DNA of 64,000 nucleotides from Nostoc sp. LPT (GTDB lineage Bacteria; Cyanobacteriota; Cyanobacteriia; Cyanobacteriales; Nostocaceae). The notes under the pieces are model-generated. The model did not search any database. It saw only the letters and a list, made by a program, of their open reading frames with translations, and had not been told where the DNA came from. Positions 5,626-13,307 of the stretch are shown in pieces. How positions within the stretch are numbered: position 1 is the stretch's first letter; every line of letters starts with the position of its first letter. The stretch is from assembly GCF_017115165.1 (NCBI RefSeq), contig NZ_JABXKF010000135.1, forward strand, positions 1-64,000, in the 5' to 3' direction. The position numbers and the translations under genes were made by a program.

Positions 5626-5699
5626 TCCTAAAGGGTGTGTGTCACAATTATTAACAGTTTCGACACGCTAATCAAGAATTCTAAAAGTAGGCGTCAGTG

Positions 5700-7802
5700 A
5701 TGGAAGTAATCTATCAGTATGCCTGGCTGATTCCGGTGTTCCCTCTTTTTGGGGCGATGCTGGTCGGTCTAGGGTTAATCTCGTTGAATCAGGTGACAAA
5801 CCGCCTACGGCAGCTTAACGCTGTGGTGATTATCTCCATGATGGCAGCAGCTATGGGGCTGTCGTTTGCCTTGTTGTGGAGTCAAATTCAAGGACACGCG
5901 CCTTATCTCCGTACCTTTGAGTGGGCGGCAGCAGGTAATTTTCACCTGAGCATGGGCTACACTATTGACCACCTGACAGCCCTAATGCTGGTGATTGTCA
6001 CAACGGTAGCCTGCTTAGTCATGGTTTACACCGATGGCTACATGGCTCACGATCCCGGTTATGTGAGGTTTTACGCCTATCTAAGTTTGTTTGGCTCTTC
6101 AATGTTAGGTCTGGTGATCAGCCCCAACCTAGTACAGATTTATATCTTCTGGGAACTTGTGGGGATGTGTTCTTACTTGCTGGTCGGCTTTTGGTACGAT
6201 CGCAAGTCAGCAGCCGATGCCGCGCAAAAAGCATTTGTTACCAACCGCGTAGGCGACTTTGGTCTATTACTCGGTATTTTGGGGCTGTTCTGGGCAACAG
6301 GAAGCTTTGATTTTAATATCATGGGCGATCGCCTCGCCCAACTCGTAGAATCAGGTTCTATCAGCAATTTTCTCGCTGTCCTGTTTGCGATTTTAGTTTT
6401 CTTAGGGCCAGTAGCGAAATCAGCCCAATTCCCCCTCCATGTCTGGCTACCAGACGCAATGGAAGGCCCCACCCCCATTTCTGCCTTGATTCACGCAGCA
6501 ACGATGGTGGCGGCGGGTGTTTTCCTGATTGCCCGGATGTACCCAGTATTTGAAGACGTTCCAGCCGCAATGAATGTCATTGCCTTTACTGGGGCGTTTA
6601 CGGCGTTCTTGGGGGCAACCATTGCCATTACCCAAAATGACATCAAAAAGGGCTTGGCTTACTCCACCATTTCCCAACTCGGTTACATGGTGATGGCAAT
6701 GGGAATAGGTTCCTACAGTGCGGGACTATTTCACCTGATGACCCATGCCTATTTCAAGGCGATGCTGTTCTTGGGTTCAGGTTCAGTAATTCATGGTATG
6801 GAAGGTGTGGTTGGACATGACCCTGCCTTAGCCCAAGATATGCGCTTGATGGGCGGACTGCGAAAGTATATGCCCGTCACAGCAACTACCTTTTTGATTG
6901 GTTGCTTGGCAATTTCTGGTATTCCGCCCTTTGCTGGTTTCTGGTCAAAAGATGAAATTCTAGGGAAGGCTTTTGAGGCGAACCCACTCCTCTGGTTTAT
7001 CGGGTGGCTAACTGCCGGGATTACTGCTTTCTATATGTTTAGAATGTATTTTTCGACATTTGAAGGTAAATTCCGGGGTACTGACGAGAAAATCAAGGAA
7101 AAACTCAAGAAGGCAGCCACAATTGTTCTGGAGTTAGAGTCAGAAGAACTAGCCCCGAATTTTGGGCCTGGGGCAATGAAAAAAGGAGAATTGGCGGCAA
7201 CTGGTGCACACCATGACTCCCATGATCATGACTCCCACGGGCATCACAGCGACTCTCCTCACGAATCGCCGTGGACAATGACTCTGCCATTAGTATTTTT
7301 GGCTGTGCCTTCGATTTTCATTGGTTTAGTGGGAACTCCCTACGCCAATTATTTTGAAGAGTTTATCTTTCCTCCTAACGAAATCACCGAAGTTCTAGAA
7401 AAGGCTTCCGAGTTCAATCCGACGGAATTCTACATTATGGCGGGTGCCTCAGTGGGAATTTCCTTGGTTGCGATTACCTTAGCTTCGCTGATGTATTTGC
7501 GCCGTAAGATTGACCCGGCTGCGATCGCTGCTAAAATCCAACCACTTTACGAGTTATCCCTCAATAAGTGGTACTTTGATGACATTTACCATCGGGTTTT
7601 TGTCCTCGGCTTGCGTCGCCTAGCTAGACAAGTTATGGAAGTTGACTTCCGCGTTGTCGATGGTGCTGTTAACCTCACAGGCTTTTTCACCCTTGTCAGC
7701 GGTGAAGGTCTGAAGTACCTAGAAAACGGTCGCGCTCAATTCTATGCCTTGATTGTGTTTGGGGCGGTTTTGGGTTTAGTGATTGTCTTTGGTGTTACCT
7801 GA
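5700..7802 (+). CDS. ndhF: NAD(P)H-quinone oxidoreductase (NDH-1) subunit 5, NdhF
   Basis: A 700-residue proton-pumping subunit of the photosynthetic NDH-1 complex, homologous to NuoL/ND5, acting in cyclic electron flow and respiration at the thylakoid membrane. Some 14-16 hydrophobic helices are visible, with the antiporter-like core motifs KSAQFPLHVWLPDAMEGPTP and LIHAATMVAAGV and the terminal lateral helix. A His/Asp-rich loop (about residues 500-525, with repeated HDSHDHDSHGHH) is a variable stromal loop. GTG at 5697 is also in frame; ATG at 5700 is preferred. It is usually directly followed by ndhD1, but here ndhD lies 3.9 kb away beyond two accessory genes. It is likely the NdhF1 paralogue of NDH-1L. 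Confidence 0.95.
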   Translation: MEVIYQYAWLIPVFPLFGAMLVGLGLISLNQVTNRLRQLNAVVIISMMAAAMGLSFALLWSQIQGHAPYLRTFEWAAAGNFHLSMGYTIDHLTALMLVIVTTVACLVMVYTDGYMAHDPGYVRFYAYLSLFGSSMLGLVISPNLVQIYIFWELVGMCSYLLVGFWYDRKSAADAAQKAFVTNRVGDFGLLLGILGLFWATGSFDFNIMGDRLAQLVESGSISNFLAVLFAILVFLGPVAKSAQFPLHVWLPDAMEGPTPISALIHAATMVAAGVFLIARMYPVFEDVPAAMNVIAFTGAFTAFLGATIAITQNDIKKGLAYSTISQLGYMVMAMGIGSYSAGLFHLMTHAYFKAMLFLGSGSVIHGMEGVVGHDPALAQDMRLMGGLRKYMPVTATTFLIGCLAISGIPPFAGFWSKDEILGKAFEANPLLWFIGWLTAGITAFYMFRMYFSTFEGKFRGTDEKIKEKLKKAATIVLELESEELAPNFGPGAMKKGELAATGAHHDSHDHDSHGHHSDSPHESPWTMTLPLVFLAVPSIFIGLVGTPYANYFEEFIFPPNEITEVLEKASEFNPTEFYIMAGASVGISLVAITLASLMYLRRKIDPAAIAAKIQPLYELSLNKWYFDDIYHRVFVLGLRRLARQVMEVDFRVVDGAVNLTGFFTLVSGEGLKYLENGRAQFYALIVFGAVLGLVIVFGVT

Positions 7803-7813
7803 TTTTCATAGAA

Positions 7814-7841
7814 GCAAAGGGGCGGTTGTCTGCCCCTTTGC
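7814..7841 (+). terminator. Strong hairpin after ndhF
   Basis: GCAAAGGGGC / GCCCCTTTGC stem of 10 pairs with an 8-base loop, just after the ndhF stop. No clean T-run follows, so it may act as a 3' end stabiliser or a bidirectional terminator with the convergent channel gene. Confidence 0.55.
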
Positions 7842-7903
7842 CTCTACATTGCTCAAGTCTCTAATTTCAGGAATAACATAATAGGCTTCTCTAACAAATT
7901 GCT

Positions 7904-10039
7904 TTAGAAAAATATAAAAATAGTAATTAACAGCAACAGTTTCAGAAGAGAAGGCCAGTAAAATATTTTAGCTATCAAGTTATCTTTATACTGTAACAGC
8001 TTTAAATCTGGTTTTACGAGCATTAAAACAGCGTTAATAGTTATTAAGAAAATGTAGAAATAAATAACTAAGTAGAAAAACTCGAAATAAACAAGTTCTT
8101 TAGCAAGGACTTGTTCCCTAAGCGAAACTTGGTCAAGAATGACAATAAAAATAAAACCAGCACAAGCTGCCAAAACCTCCATAGCCTTATCTCTATCGGC
8201 AATTACCAGCATGGCAAACAGCATGACAACGACTACAAACAGCGGGCCGATTCTGGAGATAAAAATACTGATAACTTGGCGTTTGGTAGTAATATTGAAA
8301 TTCAGTTCAGGAACATTTGTTTTAAAAATAGTATTTTGTATCCCAAAATTGCTATCGTATGTCGCATAAAGATATTCAAAAAAACTATCTTCAATCTGCC
8401 AGCCATCCAAAACTAGTCTCTTATCCAAACCAGGATGGGCGCTGGGGTTAATAATTTTATAACTCTCAAAATCGGGCGTGAGAAATACTTGGCGGTTTAA
8501 ATTACTTTGAGCGTTAAAATCGCTGTGCCATAACCGAATTTGAATATCTTTGTAGTCAAAGGGATAGTGAGAGTAATCCAAATTTTGCAGCACTGTAGCT
8601 TCCACATACCAGCCAATAACCTCAACATTTCCTTGAGTATAATGGTAAGCTTCCTTCACTTGTACATCGTTGACACTGACAGCATCCGGCATAATAAAAC
8701 CGCGAGTCAACCCATCGTGAATGCCTTTGGTATACTTCTGCCAGATGTAACCCGTCATAAAAACTTTTTTAGCACTTCCAAATTCTAAGGACTGAATGAA
8801 AATTCCAGTAGGCACATATAACGGCGGCTTTCGGTTTAAGTTTTTATTTAACTTGACTTGGGGAGCCAATAATTTATCAACTTGTGCTTGATTAAGCAGG
8901 ACGTTGTGATTGGCTATATAGTTGCGATCGCCCAAAGCTAATTTCCAAATCATTCCGATTTCTGTGGCAAACAAGATACTAGAGATTGACGACACTATCC
9001 ACACTCGGCTAGCACGAAACTCATAAGCCCGCAACATTAGAACTGACAAACAAATGAAAAACCAGACCAAGGCTAAACAGCTTAAGATTAGCGTTTGCCG
9101 CTTAGTTTGATCATCTAGCAAAACTTCTTGTTTGAGAAAGACTACTCCCACCACCCAATTATTCAGCTTAGTTGGTTGCAGGAAAAACCAAGAATTTTGA
9201 CCTGTGGTTTCATCGAACAACTCCGCTTCGCCTTCCTTACCTTGAAGCGCCTGTTTAACTAATGCTAGGAGTTGTTTGTTGTTCTGCTTGGCAGCAATTT
9301 CAACCAAGTTGTTTTGCTGTTTTACATTATCAGTAATCGTATGATAGACAAAAGTTCCATTTTTAGAAAGAACAAAGGCGTACCCCGTTTTTCCCAGTTC
9401 CAGTTTTAAGGAATCAATCAACTGTTGTATTTGACTTAAGGAATATTCACTAAAAAGAACTCCTTGCGGCAATTTTTGTTTGCCTTGCAAACGATAGAAC
9501 GGAGCATAAAATCCCACTATGGGTTCAGTCAAGAAAGACTGCTGTGACCTGCGGTAAGGTTCTCCCCAAGATGCTCCATCCTGCAACGTCTTGCGATACC
9601 AGGGATATTTTGTGTTGTCATCATTCTTCTCTTGTTGTCCCAATTGCACACTGTTGTTTACCCTGAAATAGACAGGTGCATCTAGCTTTTGGGATTTGCT
9701 TCTACTAACACCAGCTTCATAAGCTGCACCGAAGGTAGCAAGATAAGGGTTTTTTTCAATTTTTTGTTGGAGTTGCGCTGATAGTTGCTCATCGTTGATT
9801 TCACCTGTTGTGAGGGAGTTAGCAAGAGCAAGAGAATTATCTTGAGTGTTACGCAGTTCGTTCTCGATCTCCAGAGTCGTTAGTACAGCTTCTCGCTGGG
9901 CTTGGTTTTTAGTTTTTTGAAGTCTCTGTTGTGCGGTGTGCCAATAGGTGTAAAACCCAAATAGAGCTAATGCAAGAGTGATACCACAAAGGGTTAGTAA
10001 TGTAAAGAATAGTATTTTTTGCTTTTTATTCTTTTCCAT
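7904..10039 (-). CDS. Cache-domain pentameric ligand-gated ion channel-like protein
   Basis: A 711-residue membrane protein. Order of parts: TM 10-30; a large extracytoplasmic region 33-310 that reads as a double Cache sensor (TGYAFVLSKNGTFVYH, WFFLQPTKLNNWVVGVV); TM 316-337; TM 345-368; a second extracytoplasmic domain 375-588; then four hydrophobic helices, 588-613, 617-637, 648-674 and 692-711. The second domain carries TGYIWQKY and the YPFDYKDIQ stretch (492-500), which matches the Pro-loop/Cys-loop signature (F/Y-P-F-D) of pentameric ligand-gated channels, and the last four helices fit M1-M4. As in other prokaryotic members, no Cys-loop disulfide is present. The ligand and conducted ion are unknown. 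It is divergent from the PstS-like gene 105 bases away and convergent with ndhF. The channel assignment rests on motif and topology only. Confidence 0.72.
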   Translation of the reverse strand: MEKNKKQKILFFTLLTLCGITLALALFGFYTYWHTAQQRLQKTKNQAQREAVLTTLEIENELRNTQDNSLALANSLTTGEINDEQLSAQLQQKIEKNPYLATFGAAYEAGVSRSKSQKLDAPVYFRVNNSVQLGQQEKNDDNTKYPWYRKTLQDGASWGEPYRRSQQSFLTEPIVGFYAPFYRLQGKQKLPQGVLFSEYSLSQIQQLIDSLKLELGKTGYAFVLSKNGTFVYHTITDNVKQQNNLVEIAAKQNNKQLLALVKQALQGKEGEAELFDETTGQNSWFFLQPTKLNNWVVGVVFLKQEVLLDDQTKRQTLILSCLALVWFFICLSVLMLRAYEFRASRVWIVSSISSILFATEIGMIWKLALGDRNYIANHNVLLNQAQVDKLLAPQVKLNKNLNRKPPLYVPTGIFIQSLEFGSAKKVFMTGYIWQKYTKGIHDGLTRGFIMPDAVSVNDVQVKEAYHYTQGNVEVIGWYVEATVLQNLDYSHYPFDYKDIQIRLWHSDFNAQSNLNRQVFLTPDFESYKIINPSAHPGLDKRLVLDGWQIEDSFFEYLYATYDSNFGIQNTIFKTNVPELNFNITTKRQVISIFISRIGPLFVVVVMLFAMLVIADRDKAMEVLAACAGFIFIVILDQVSLREQVLAKELVYFEFFYLVIYFYIFLITINAVLMLVKPDLKLLQYKDNLIAKIFYWPSLLKLLLLITIFIFF

Positions 10040-10144
10040 AAATGCCAGTTATCAAAAGCGTAAATAAATTTTCTCGTAAAGTATTCTGACACTTTTCCAT
10101 ATAATTTACATATAAATTGGCTGTATCTATTTATAGTTAAAATA
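10040..10144. promoter_or_regulatory. Shared divergent promoter region
   Basis: A 105-base AT-rich interval separates the start codons of the channel-like gene (leftward) and the PstS-like gene (rightward), so any regulator bound here could control both. No clear operator or box was recognised. Confidence 0.4.
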
Positions 10145-11200
10145 ATGATTCATATTAGGTGTTTTTTAGCAACTATCTTATTGGTGAGTTTGACTGCTTG
10201 TACCAGCGAGCAAAGGCAAGTTTATACTCCACTAGACAGCAGAGTAAATGGCAATACTGGCTTAGGTGCAAGTAAAAATGTACTGATTGACGGTTCGGGT
10301 ACGGTTTCTGTTATTAGTGAAGCAATGAAAGAACAATTTAGAAAAGTAAACCCCAATGTAAGAATCGCTATTGGGAAGAACGGTACTGGAGACGGCTTTA
10401 CAAGGTTTTGCCTTGGCGTAACTGATATCTCAATGGCAGCCCGTCCGATAAAAAAGTCAGAGATTGAAGCCTGCCAAAAAAACAACATTGAATTCGTTGA
10501 ATTGCCCCTTGCCCTTGATGGCATCTCCCTTGTAGTCAATCGCACCAACACTTGGGCTACTTGCCTCAAACCTCAAGAACTGAGCAAAATATGGGAGTCT
10601 GCTGCATCAGGCAAAATCGTTAACTGGAACCAAGTTCGTAATGATTACCCCGATCAATATCCCCTCATACTGGCTGGACCGGCTGTAGGCACTGGTACTG
10701 TAGACTATTTTAGTGAGGTGATAATTGGCAAAAGTGGGAAAATCCGCAACGACTACAAAACCAGTGAAGAGGAAAGCGTAACTGTTCAGACAGTCGCGTC
10801 TGAGCCGGGAGGTCTTGGCTTTACATCCTTTTCCCGCTACCTAAAAAATCAGAACATTCTCAAGGCTCTTGCTATTGAGAACAAGGAAGGTAAATGTGTA
10901 GAGCCAAGCCCAGAAACGATCGCCAACAGCAGCTATAATCCCCTTTCCCGTCCTCTATTTATATACGTCAGCAAGACAGCTCTTAAAGAAAATCCTGTCG
11001 TCAAAGTTTTTGCAGATTACCACCTAAATGCTGCTAACCGTTCCTTAATCTCAGAAAGTGGCTACGTTCCTTTGCCGGATAACTTGCTAGCAAAGGTGCG
11101 ATCGCGTTTAGATCATGCGATCGCTGGCTCGGTTTTTGAGGAAGGGTCGCCAGCCAATGTCAAACTTGCAGATCAACTAGCAAGTTCCAAACAGAGGTAG
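10145..11200 (+). CDS. PstS-like phosphate-family substrate-binding lipoprotein
   Basis: A 351-residue protein with a lipoprotein signal (lipobox LTAC, lipidated Cys19) and a PBP type-2 fold of the PstS family: DGSGTVSVISEA near residue 50, TDISMAARPIKKSE (about 92-105), then VGTGTVDYF and VASEPGGLGFTSFSRY. These are the loops that bind phosphate in PstS, though the usual R-x-x-SGT loop is altered to GPAVGTGT, so the ligand may differ. No pstC, pstA or pstB gene is nearby. Its only close neighbour is the divergent Cache/channel protein, which suggests a sensory rather than a transport role. That link is inference. Confidence 0.8.
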   Translation: MIHIRCFLATILLVSLTACTSEQRQVYTPLDSRVNGNTGLGASKNVLIDGSGTVSVISEAMKEQFRKVNPNVRIAIGKNGTGDGFTRFCLGVTDISMAARPIKKSEIEACQKNNIEFVELPLALDGISLVVNRTNTWATCLKPQELSKIWESAASGKIVNWNQVRNDYPDQYPLILAGPAVGTGTVDYFSEVIIGKSGKIRNDYKTSEEESVTVQTVASEPGGLGFTSFSRYLKNQNILKALAIENKEGKCVEPSPETIANSSYNPLSRPLFIYVSKTALKENPVVKVFADYHLNAANRSLISESGYVPLPDNLLAKVRSRLDHAIAGSVFEEGSPANVKLADQLASSKQR

Positions 11201-11729
11201 AAAACAGATACTAGCGTGACAAGTCTAATATGGTACTAGGTTTATTTAAACCAAGGAATGACTCATAGTAAGTTGATAAGCTGGCAAGGGCCGACCCAGG
11301 AAGCATGGTGATAAATTCAAACTGAGTGAATCCTCTACATAGAGCGAAGTCACTCAAAGTTTAGGAATGAACTGATCGCTTTTACCCAAGAATTGCCCTA
11401 TCGTTTTTCTCCACACTACTGAGAAATGAGAGGCATTATGCGATTCGGTTGGAAAATTGTTTTATTCCTTTCCTCTCAAGGTATTAATTCCTTTTGCCAT
11501 CTCAAAATAAGCGAACGTACAGTTTTTAGGGTAAATTTTTGACAAGACTTGGAGTATCACAACGCACATTTTGCACCCCCAAATGTCAAAAAAGACTCCC
11601 AAGAAAAGAAATGGGGGATTGCTAATTTAATTAAATCAACCTAACGAGGAAGACGAAATCCCCAAAAAGCTGTTACTTAATAACTAGTGACTTTTTGCCA
11701 AACATGATTTTGATAGCAGACGAATTGTG
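11201..11729. other. Intergenic region upstream of ndhD
   Basis: About 530 bases with no supported gene. It is of mixed composition, with weak short inverted repeats only. It presumably holds an independent ndhD promoter, since the upstream gene is a PstS-like lipoprotein and not ndhF. Confidence 0.4.
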
Positions 11730-13307
11730 ATGAATACAGCTAATTTTCCGTGGCTGACGACGATTATTCTGTTGCCAATAGCCGCGTCGCTACTTCTTCC
11801 CATCATCCCTGACAAAGAAGGCAAAACAGTGCGCTGGTACTCCCTGATCGTGGGGCTGATAGATTTTGCACTAATTGTTTACGCTTTTTATACTGGGTAT
11901 GATTTTTCCAATCCAGATTTGCAGTTAGTGGAGAGTTACCCCTGGGTACCACAATTGGGTTTGAATTGGTCAGTAGGAGCAGATGGCTTGTCCATGCCCC
12001 TAATTATTTTGACTGGATTCATTACCACGCTGGCGATTTTAGCAGCTTGGCCTGTTACCTTCAAGCCGAAGCTATTTTACTTCTTGATTTTGGCGATGTA
12101 TGGCGGTCAGATTGCCGTGTTCGCTGTCCAGGATATGCTGTTATTTTTCCTGGTGTGGGAACTGGAACTAGTACCGATATACTTTCTGCTGTCGATTTGG
12201 GGAGGCAAAAGGCGGCAATATGCAGCAACCAAATTTATTTTATACACCGCAGGCGGGTCGCTGTTTATTTTGCTGTCTGCCCTGACAATGGGATTTTACG
12301 GCGATACGGTGACGTTTGACATGCGATCGCTCGCCTTAAAAGATTTCGCCCTGAATTTCCAACTTGCCCTTTATGCTGGATTCCTAATTGCTTACGCTGT
12401 CAAGTTGCCGATTATTCCTTTGCACACCTGGCTACCTGATGCCCACGGTGAAGCTACAGCCCCTGTACACATGTTATTAGCAGGTATTCTCTTGAAAATG
12501 GGCGGTTACGCCTTAGTTCGGATGAATGCCCAAATGCTCCCCGATGCCCACGCTTATTTTGCACCAGTGTTCGTAGTTTTGGGGGTAGTTAATATCATCT
12601 ACGCTGCCTTGACATCCTTTGCCCAGCGCAACCTAAAGCGAAAAATTGCCTACTCCTCAATTTCTCACATGGGCTTTGTGATGATTGGTATCGCCTCCTT
12701 CACCGATTTGGGATTGAGTGGGGCAGTATTGCAAATGGTTTCCCACGGGTTAATTGGGGCGAGTTTGTTCTTCCTGGTCGGCGCAACTTACGATCGCACA
12801 CACACCCTGATGTTGGATGAAATGGGCGGTGTCGCTAAGAGAATGCCGAAGATTTTCGCCATGTTCACCACCTGTTCAATGGCTTCTTTGGCATTGCCAG
12901 GGATGAGCGGTTTCGTGGCAGAATTAATGGTATTTGTCGGCTTTGCTACTAGCGATGCTTATAGCTCTACCTTCAAAGTTATCGTGGTGTTTTTGATGGC
13001 AGTGGGAGTGATTTTAACTCCGATTTATCTGCTGTCGATGTTGCGAGAAATTTTCTACGGTAAAGAGAACGAGGAATTAGTTTCTCACCAAGCTTTGATA
13101 GATGCTGAACCCCGTGAAGTATTTATCATTGCCTGTTTGTTAATTCCAATTATTGGTATTGGTTTCTATCCAAAATTGCTGACTCAAATGTATGACGCTA
13201 CAACTGTACAATTGACGGCAAGATTGCGGGATTCTGTACCGACATTAGCACAGCAAAAAGAAGAAACACTAAAGGTTTCTTTGAGTGCACCGGAAATTGG
13301 TAATTAA
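11730..13307 (+). CDS. ndhD: NAD(P)H-quinone oxidoreductase (NDH-1) subunit 4, NdhD
   Basis: A 525-residue antiporter-like proton-pumping subunit homologous to NuoM/ND4. About 14 hydrophobic helices are present, with the conserved glutamate helix ([20 protein letters not shown]) and the [21 protein letters not shown] and [17 protein letters not shown] motifs. Together with NdhF it belongs to the distal membrane arm of NDH-1L. The starts GTG 11727 and ATG 11730 are both in frame; the ATG is used. A clear terminator follows. It is probably the ndhD1 paralogue because of the ndhF partner. Confidence 0.95.

What the first reader, a model, noticed from the sequence alone, without database searches (positions are those of the whole stretch)
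7904..11200. Cache-domain ligand-gated channel-like protein paired with a PstS-like lipoprotein
The 711-residue protein has two extracytoplasmic sensor regions: a double-Cache-like domain and a second domain with the YPFD Pro-loop and four terminal helices typical of pentameric ligand-gated channels. A divergently transcribed PstS-like binding lipoprotein without any transporter genes lies 105 bases away. A substrate-binding protein that presents a ligand, phosphate or other, to a Cache-gated ion channel would be an unusual bacterial signalling system. The topology and motifs are seen; the channel assignment and functional link are inference.
Basis: partly seen in the sequence, partly recalled or inferred. 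Interest (0 to 1): 0.85.

Follow-up and report, generated by a model that had tools for sequence, protein, structure and literature searches.

The report
Sensor-gated ion channel with binding protein
A cyanobacterial gene encodes a relative of animal neurotransmitter receptors that carries an extra sensor domain and is paired with a small-molecule-binding lipoprotein; the receptor type has been known since 2004-5, but this pairing, and similar pairings elsewhere, make a ligand-delivery mechanism testable.

Summary
The 711-aa protein is a double-Cache sensor joined to a full pentameric ligand-gated ion channel (pLGIC) module. Its AlphaFold2 model (pLDDT 87) matches solved dCache domains and GLIC; the Pro-loop proline is 73 of 73 and the pre-M1 arginine 72 of 73 in the alignment. 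The PstS-like lipoprotein is 105 bp away, divergent; a pstC search of the genome found nothing on this contig.

The pair is not a feature of the genus: 1 of 53 genomes has the channel, in a variable slot between ndhF1 and ndhD1. On a tree of 68 channels, 9 of 11 rows of one cyanobacterial clade have a PstS-like gene nearby, in several orientations, some fused to SBP_bac_3; none of the 57 other rows has (10 of them on short contigs). Seven non-cyanobacterial Cache-channel genes lie co-directional with a type-I binding-protein gene; such genes are 8 of 197 within two places, 1 of 360 beyond.

Phosphate is doubtful: three inferred contact positions differ and no Pho box was found. Docking and gating are inference. 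Tasneem et al. already described Cache-fused prokaryotic pLGICs and binding-protein neighbours. Verdict: new variant of a known kind, worth a bench test.

The parts
7904..10039 (-). Cache-pLGIC channel subunit gene, 711 aa
9959..10015 (-). TM1, N-terminal anchor (residues 9-27), positive N-terminus MEKNKKQK
   Evidence: hydropathy; helix in model
9140..9913 (-). double Cache (dCache_1) sensor, residues 43-300
   Evidence: Pfam; PDB profile hits; Foldseek
9035..9112 (-). TM2 after the Cache domain, residues 310-335
8930..9013 (-). TM3 before the ligand-binding domain, residues 343-370
8279..8821 (-). pLGIC extracellular beta-sandwich, residues 407-587
8555..8566 (-). Pro-loop YPFD, residues 492-495; P in 73 of 73, D in 69 of 73 (E in 4)
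7910..8275 (-). four helices M1-M4, residues 589-710
8111..8194 (-). M2, presumed pore-lining helix, residues 616-643 (E621 near its start; F631 in 69 of 73)
   Evidence: pore role inferred from pLGIC homology
10040..10144 (.). 105-bp divergent intergenic region; no Pho-box-like match in it, no excess of promoter-like sites around it
10145..11200 (+). PstS-like (PBP type II) binding lipoprotein gene, 351 aa
10190..10201 (+). lipobox LTAC, residues 16-19
   Evidence: sequence read; motif recalled

Best explanation
The 711-aa protein is a subunit of a homopentameric pLGIC with two extracytoplasmic input modules: a membrane-tethered double Cache domain and the channel's own ligand-binding sandwich. 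The PstS-like lipoprotein is an accessory periplasmic binding protein: it captures a small ligand and docks on the Cache domain (or hands the ligand over), which shifts the TM1/TM2/TM3 helices and gates ion flow through the M2-lined pore. Shown: both folds in one predicted chain, the gene pair, its recurrence in one clade, and type-I binding-protein genes beside other Cache-pLGICs. Inferred: pentamer, conduction, physical docking, gating direction, ligand. Phosphate is possible but not favoured.
For: AF2 model pLDDT 87.4, pTM 0.80. Foldseek hits to dCache (TMt up to 0.79) and to GLIC and GLIC chimeras (E from 2.5e-11, TMt up to 0.75). C-terminal profile hits GLIC-type chains, best E 3.9e-4. 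Superfamily signature residues. On the channel tree the 9 linked rows used fall in one starred set of 11, 0 of 57 other rows linked, 3 changes, 0 of 500 shuffles as few. Linked PstS-like proteins cluster on their own tree: 2 changes, 0 of 500 shuffles as few. Type-I binding proteins: 8 of 197 genes within two places against 1 of 360 beyond, p 0.0014; PstS/SBP3 type 6 of 197 against 2 of 360, p 0.026. Brasilonema has both kinds beside its channel.
Against: Only 13 of 70 non-redundant Cache-pLGIC loci have a binding protein of these kinds within two genes. Orientation and spacing of the PstS-like gene vary from a slight overlap to 3.7 kb, so a shared promoter is often impossible. An Okeania member with 8 kb visible on both sides (L078) lacks it, as does L037; the other unlinked row of the clade, L073, ends 158 bp after the channel and is uninformative. 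Distances of the two proteins correlate over 8 linked pairs (r 0.92, 12 of 20000 permutations as high) but not convincingly without near-duplicates (r 0.42, 93 of 720); unlinked paralogues of five genomes also correlated (r 0.91, 10 of 120; linked, same five: 0.95, 4 of 120). The node that unites the linked PstS-like proteins is weak (78/53) and holds three unlinked ones; 0% of 200 bootstrap trees make them one clade; one clade of the six more diverged is not rejected (AU p 0.089). No Pfam channel model matched. No functional data.
Confidence: 0.5

Rival explanations
1. The channel works alone; the PstS-like gene is a scavenging lipoprotein that travels with it through shared horizontal transfer or inherited synteny, without physical interaction.
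For: The pair sits in a slot that carries different cargo in relatives. The two Okeania copies aligned keep 23 of 24 conserved motif positions and lie about 0.5 and 0.9 kb away, convergent. Distance correlation is weak without near-duplicates.
Against: Linkage survives several rearrangements of orientation across cyanobacterial families, and other phyla link different binding proteins to the same channel type.
Confidence: 0.27
2. A phosphate-starvation sensor: the lipoprotein binds phosphate like PstS and reports it to the channel.
For: TIGR02136 hit at 5.9e-73 and 4jwo hit at 2e-62; the Okeania copies keep the motif region.
Against: In the window copy S79N, S99A and S183T replace positions that I equate by recall with phosphate contacts of E. 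coli PstS; 7 of 24 positions conserved in the motif segments of unlinked copies are changed, although other conserved positions decay in proportion (40 of 52 kept, Fisher p 0.58). No Pho-box match between the genes and no excess in the window. Some partners elsewhere are type-I binding proteins.
Confidence: 0.13
3. The protein kept the pLGIC fold but signals through a cytoplasmic output rather than ion flux; the TPR-fused versions point to protein-protein interaction.
For: The Spirulina and SBLK channels carry an N-terminal extension of about 550 residues; Pfam finds TPRs in the Spirulina one, and the SBLK one reads alike.
Against: Only these two of the 11 linked channels are that long. Pro-loop, pre-M1 arginine and M2-M3 residues are near invariant, as expected if gating is under selection.
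Confidence: 0.1

Closest known systems
Prokaryotic ART-LGICs with MCP-N/Cache fusion (Tasneem et al., PMC549065; Methanosarcina, Cytophaga, Microbulbifer)
   Same: Cache input domain N-terminal to a pLGIC core; PBP-II and Cache gene neighbours reported for some prokaryotic channels. Methanosarcina and Cellvibrionaceae members fall in the family found here.
   Different: In the parts I read, cyanobacterial members were described with the simple architecture, and no PstS-like/SBP_bac_3 fusion partner, TPR fusion or TM hairpin between Cache and LBD is mentioned; I did not read the whole paper or see its figure 3.
GLIC (Gloeobacter proton-gated pLGIC)
   Same: LBD plus M1-M4 fold, TMt about 0.7; collinear profile hit.
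   Different: About 15% identity in the structural alignment; GLIC has no Cache domain and no accessory helices (recalled; chain lengths of about 310).
DeCLIC (PMC9897478, PMC12664993; passages read)
   Same: A pLGIC with an extra N-terminal periplasmic module.
   Different: Its NTD lobes are described as homologous to other regulatory domains, including calcium-binding ones, and 'Cache' does not occur in either text; the 2022 paper calls it the only family member with an extra NTD and a determined structure.
LuxP-LuxQ (PMC5467912, passages read)
   Same: A periplasmic binding protein works with a membrane receptor; this is my working model for the input side.
   Different: Output is a histidine kinase, not an ion channel; LuxP as a type-I binding protein and the fold of the LuxQ sensor are recalled.
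PstS/SphX-type phosphate-binding proteins (TIGR02136)
   Same: Family match above cut-off; 46% and 41% identity to the two closest other copies in the same genome.
   Different: Not next to pstC; inferred pocket positions altered.

Membership tests
pLGIC (Pro-loop receptor) | beta-sandwich LBD followed by four TM helices | tested here: met
   (predicted model)
pLGIC (Pro-loop receptor) | Cys-loop proline, the only residue called absolutely conserved in the abstract of PMC4795631 | tested here: met
   P493 in 73 of 73 rows of A2
pLGIC (Pro-loop receptor) | acidic residue in the loop and basic residue at the end of the LBD (PMC549065) | tested here: met
   D495: D 69, E 4 of 73; R587 72 of 73
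pLGIC (Pro-loop receptor) | match to a Pfam channel model | tested here: not met
   no such model at E up to 1 for the window protein or its C-terminal half, nor at E up to 0.1 among the families matched by the 25 members of A1. Membership rests on profile-to-PDB (best E 3.9e-4), fold and signature residues
pLGIC (Pro-loop receptor) | pentamer that conducts ions on ligand binding | not testable with these tools
   single-chain prediction only
dCache_1 sensor | Pfam match above cut-off and the double-Cache fold | tested here: met
   49.7 bits against 45; 25 of 25 A1 members match; Foldseek
dCache_1AA amino-acid sensor | arginine equivalent to PctA R126 (PMC10104139, passages) | tested here: not met
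   the position two before W147 is Y145 in the window and R in 3 of 73 rows; HMMER alignment only, equivalence read from the RPWY of PctA/PctB
PstS transporter subunit | TIGR02136 above cut-off | tested here: met
   245.6 bits against 206.6
PstS transporter subunit | lies with pst transporter genes | tested here: not met
   13 pstC-model matches in the genome, none on C36; flanking genes are ndhF- and ndhD-like
PstS transporter subunit | phosphate-contact residues kept | tested here: inconclusive
   17 of 24 motif positions kept; contacts assigned by recall

The most novel reading that the evidence does not exclude
A family of prokaryotic pLGICs gated through a Cache domain by separate periplasmic binding proteins, interchangeable in type (PstS-like, SBP_bac_3-PstS fusions, type-I proteins), as in a LuxP-LuxQ receptor whose output is an ion channel. 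No such gating mode has been shown for any pLGIC that I know of or that searches listed.
Probability: 0.35. Interest if true: 0.8.

Novelty: new variant of a known kind. Interest (0 to 1): 0.58.

Why it matters
What prokaryotic pLGICs sense and do in the cell is largely open (my knowledge of the field). A recurring channel plus binding-protein pair gives a concrete ligand-finding route: identify what the soluble protein binds, then test the channel. If true it would also show a pLGIC modulated by a second protein on the extracytoplasmic side, through a sensor tethered beside the channel.

Tried and rejected
Pfam/NCBIfam on the C-terminal half: no channel model. Bridging through simple channel-like ORFs of about 345-378 aa from the same order: they align over the Pro-loop and helices, but the four scanned also have no Pfam channel hit, so they do not bridge.

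Re-specified binding pocket of the PstS-like protein: the motif positions decay no faster than other conserved positions (Fisher p 0.58 for the window, 0.32 to 1.0 for the other seven linked copies), so a targeted change of ligand is not shown. The comparison is partly circular, since the consensus comes from the unlinked copies; 2 of 25 unlinked copies were left out of it and of the tree.

Co-evolution of the two proteins by distance correlation: not supported beyond near-duplicates.

Pho box between the genes: none; window count 31 against 35.3 expected (consensus typed from recall). Promoter-like sites 7 against 8.5 expected, terminator-like 1 against 3.8.

Fusion of channel and PstS-like protein in one ORF: no ORF matched both.

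Rows dropped. A2: ORFs outside 640-800 aa and L080, L092, L113, L142, with one cut from the long Spirulina ORF added. Channel tree: eight further loci left out, two of them near-duplicate linked Okeania loci, and L032 and L079 added. Neighbour count: eight redundant loci left out, genes of 150 aa or more only. Pfam neighbour scan: 88 of 189 listed neighbours, chosen from non-cyanobacterial loci. My notebook says 10 of 40 for and 11 of 79; both should read 9 (plus the window).
Full report
What is there. The window carries, between ndhF-like (5697-7802) and ndhD-like (11727-13307) genes, a 711-aa ORF on the minus strand and, 105 bp from its start, a divergent 351-aa ORF. The gene names ndhF1/ndhD1 are mine from the sequences. 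Pfam finds dCache_1 at residues 43-300, and NCBIfam finds TIGR02136 in the lipoprotein. Nothing in Pfam or NCBIfam names the C-terminal half.

Fold. With 73 family sequences (window included) AlphaFold2 gives pLDDT 87.4 and pTM 0.80 for the whole chain. Foldseek against the PDB returns two sets among its 50 listed rows: solved dCache domains (for example 9heh, 3lib, 5wbf; TMt 0.71-0.79) and pLGICs (GLIC and GLIC-GABA-A chimeras, E from 2.5e-11, TMt 0.66-0.75; animal GABA-A chains 0.55-0.64). Sequence agrees more weakly: the full-length profile hits GLIC only at E 0.068 or worse, but a profile of 19 diverse C-terminal halves hits a GLIC chimera (5osa) at 3.9e-4 and GLIC entries from 0.001, collinear from before the Pro-loop into the helices. 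P493 is 73 of 73, R587 72 of 73, R641 73 of 73. Hydropathy gives seven TM segments (eight windows, two overlapping): one before Cache, two between Cache and LBD, four after. So the Cache domain is membrane-tethered and not simply stacked on the LBD; this is a model, not a structure.

Distribution. The C-terminal half finds matches in 61 of 388 genomes of the order at E 0.001; by my hand count 46 of these are at 1e-20 or better, the other 15 being remote channel-like ORFs or fragments. No other genome of the window's family code f1 is among the 61. In the genus, 1 of 53 genomes has it at E 1e-40, the window's own. A scan of genome contigs found 158 relatives and kept 79 loci, from cyanobacteria, Pseudomonadota, Chloroflexota, Acidobacteriota, Nitrospirota, Methanosarcina-type archaea and others. 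Cache-less versions of 413-495 aa exist, and versions with an N-terminal TPR region.

Insertion slot. Of the 52 other genomes of the genus I fetched 15 regions; the ndhF-ndhD distance could be measured in 12: 233 to 5826 bp, with varied ORFs in most. In the other three the best ndhF-like match was a paralogue. None of the 15 matched the channel or the lipoprotein. An earlier look with 1.5-kb flanks mostly did not reach ndhF. The window thus holds the pair as the contents of a variable slot, which fits acquisition as a unit but does not prove it.

The partner. Layouts are divergent (window; Spirulina, with ORFs overlapping by 29 bp; SBLK at 79 bp; Prochloraceae at 3.7 kb), convergent (G003 at 88 bp, Okeania at 0.5 to about 3 kb, Brasilonema with one gene between) or co-directional (Xenococcus, where the partner is broken into two ORFs). 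In Spirulina, SBLK, Xenococcus and Prochloraceae the partner joins an SBP_bac_3 and a PstS-like part; Pfam was run on two of these, a home-made profile on all. On a tree of 68 channels the nine linked rows used fall in one starred set of 11. Of the two unlinked rows there, L073 has only 158 bp after the channel, so its downstream side is unseen; L078 has 8 kb on both sides without the gene. None of the 57 other rows is linked; 10 of them have under 1.5 kb on one side, so the zero is somewhat soft. The linked PstS-like proteins also cluster, with weak support for one group. In the window's genome nine matches exist; the two closest besides the window's own are 46% and 41% identical, and the 41% one lies beside pstC. 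All 25 channel-bearing genomes tested have PstS-like matches somewhere, so the gene family itself is common; what is special is the place.

Other partners. Among 70 non-redundant loci, type-I binding proteins make up 8 of 197 genes within two places of the channel and 1 of 360 beyond (Fisher p 0.0014); PstS/SBP_bac_3 types 6 of 197 and 2 of 360 (p 0.026; one of the two is the Prochloraceae partner itself). Loci share ancestry, so these p-values are optimistic. In all, 13 of 70 loci have a binding protein of either kind within two genes. Seven of the eight type-I cases are outside cyanobacteria (Nitrospirota, two Acidobacteriota, four Pseudomonadota), co-directional and overlapping or within 100 bp. 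The Pfam scan of 88 of 189 neighbours, non-cyanobacterial loci only, gave Peripla_BP_6 in 6, the most frequent, then Peripla_BP_5, eCIS_core and Rhodanese in 4 each; Cache families in 2 and SBP_bac_5 in 1. Brasilonema has a Peripla_BP_5 protein between channel and PstS-like gene.

Ligand. Most unlinked copies share the segments DGSSTVFP, SGTGGGF, ISNASRPI, DSGTYDYF or close forms; the window reads DGSGTVSV, NGTGDGF, ISMAARPI, GTGTVDYF. This argues against plain phosphate binding, but the segments decay with the rest of the protein. The amino-acid-sensor arginine of dCache_1AA is Y145 here and R in 3 of 73 rows. The ligand is unknown.

Literature. Tasneem et al. (PMC549065; passages and one of six parts of the main text read) already reported Cache fusions, PBP-I fusions, PBP-II and Cache neighbours, and proposed that such proteins concentrate or sense ligands for the channel. 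Searches for later work on Cache or solute-binding proteins with pLGICs (open-access library only) showed nothing on this family in their listings; of the listed papers I opened passages of the DeCLIC papers, PMC4795631 (abstract and one passage) and PMC2950845. Absence from these searches is not proof of novelty.

Judgement. The fold claim is secure (about 0.95). Working together is about even to slightly likely, and unproven. The mechanism is a LuxP-LuxQ-like input on an ion channel, proposed by analogy.

Noticed in passing
window 7803-11726, and loci L190-L204: The ndhF1-ndhD1 interval is a variable slot in the genus: 233 to 5826 bp in 12 measurable of 15 fetched congeneric regions, with differing ORFs.
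   Followed up: partly
L074:4181-6262, L121:2481-4235: Lipoprotein-like ORFs that join an SBP_bac_3 domain to a PstS-like domain beside Cache-pLGIC genes.
   Followed up: partly
L091:5539-5991 and L121:4602-5054: Two similar-looking 150-aa ORFs (by eye; twin-arginine-like, cysteine-bearing N-terminus) lie near the channel in Xenococcus and Prochloraceae; not identified.
   Followed up: no
L034, L036-L039 and others cluster 2 (9 loci): A mechanosensitive-channel-like gene (Pfam MS_channel_2nd in L078:5621-6832) recurs beside the Okeania-type Cache-pLGIC.
   Followed up: no
L059, L060, L062, L064-L066 (cluster 5, 6 loci): A recurring gene family of about 190-320 aa near Microcystis-, Geitlerinema- and Phormidium-type Cache-pLGICs; not identified.
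   Followed up: no
L146:5454-9257: A 1267-aa channel ORF in a Euryarchaeota genome has a long N-terminal part that was not examined.
   Followed up: no
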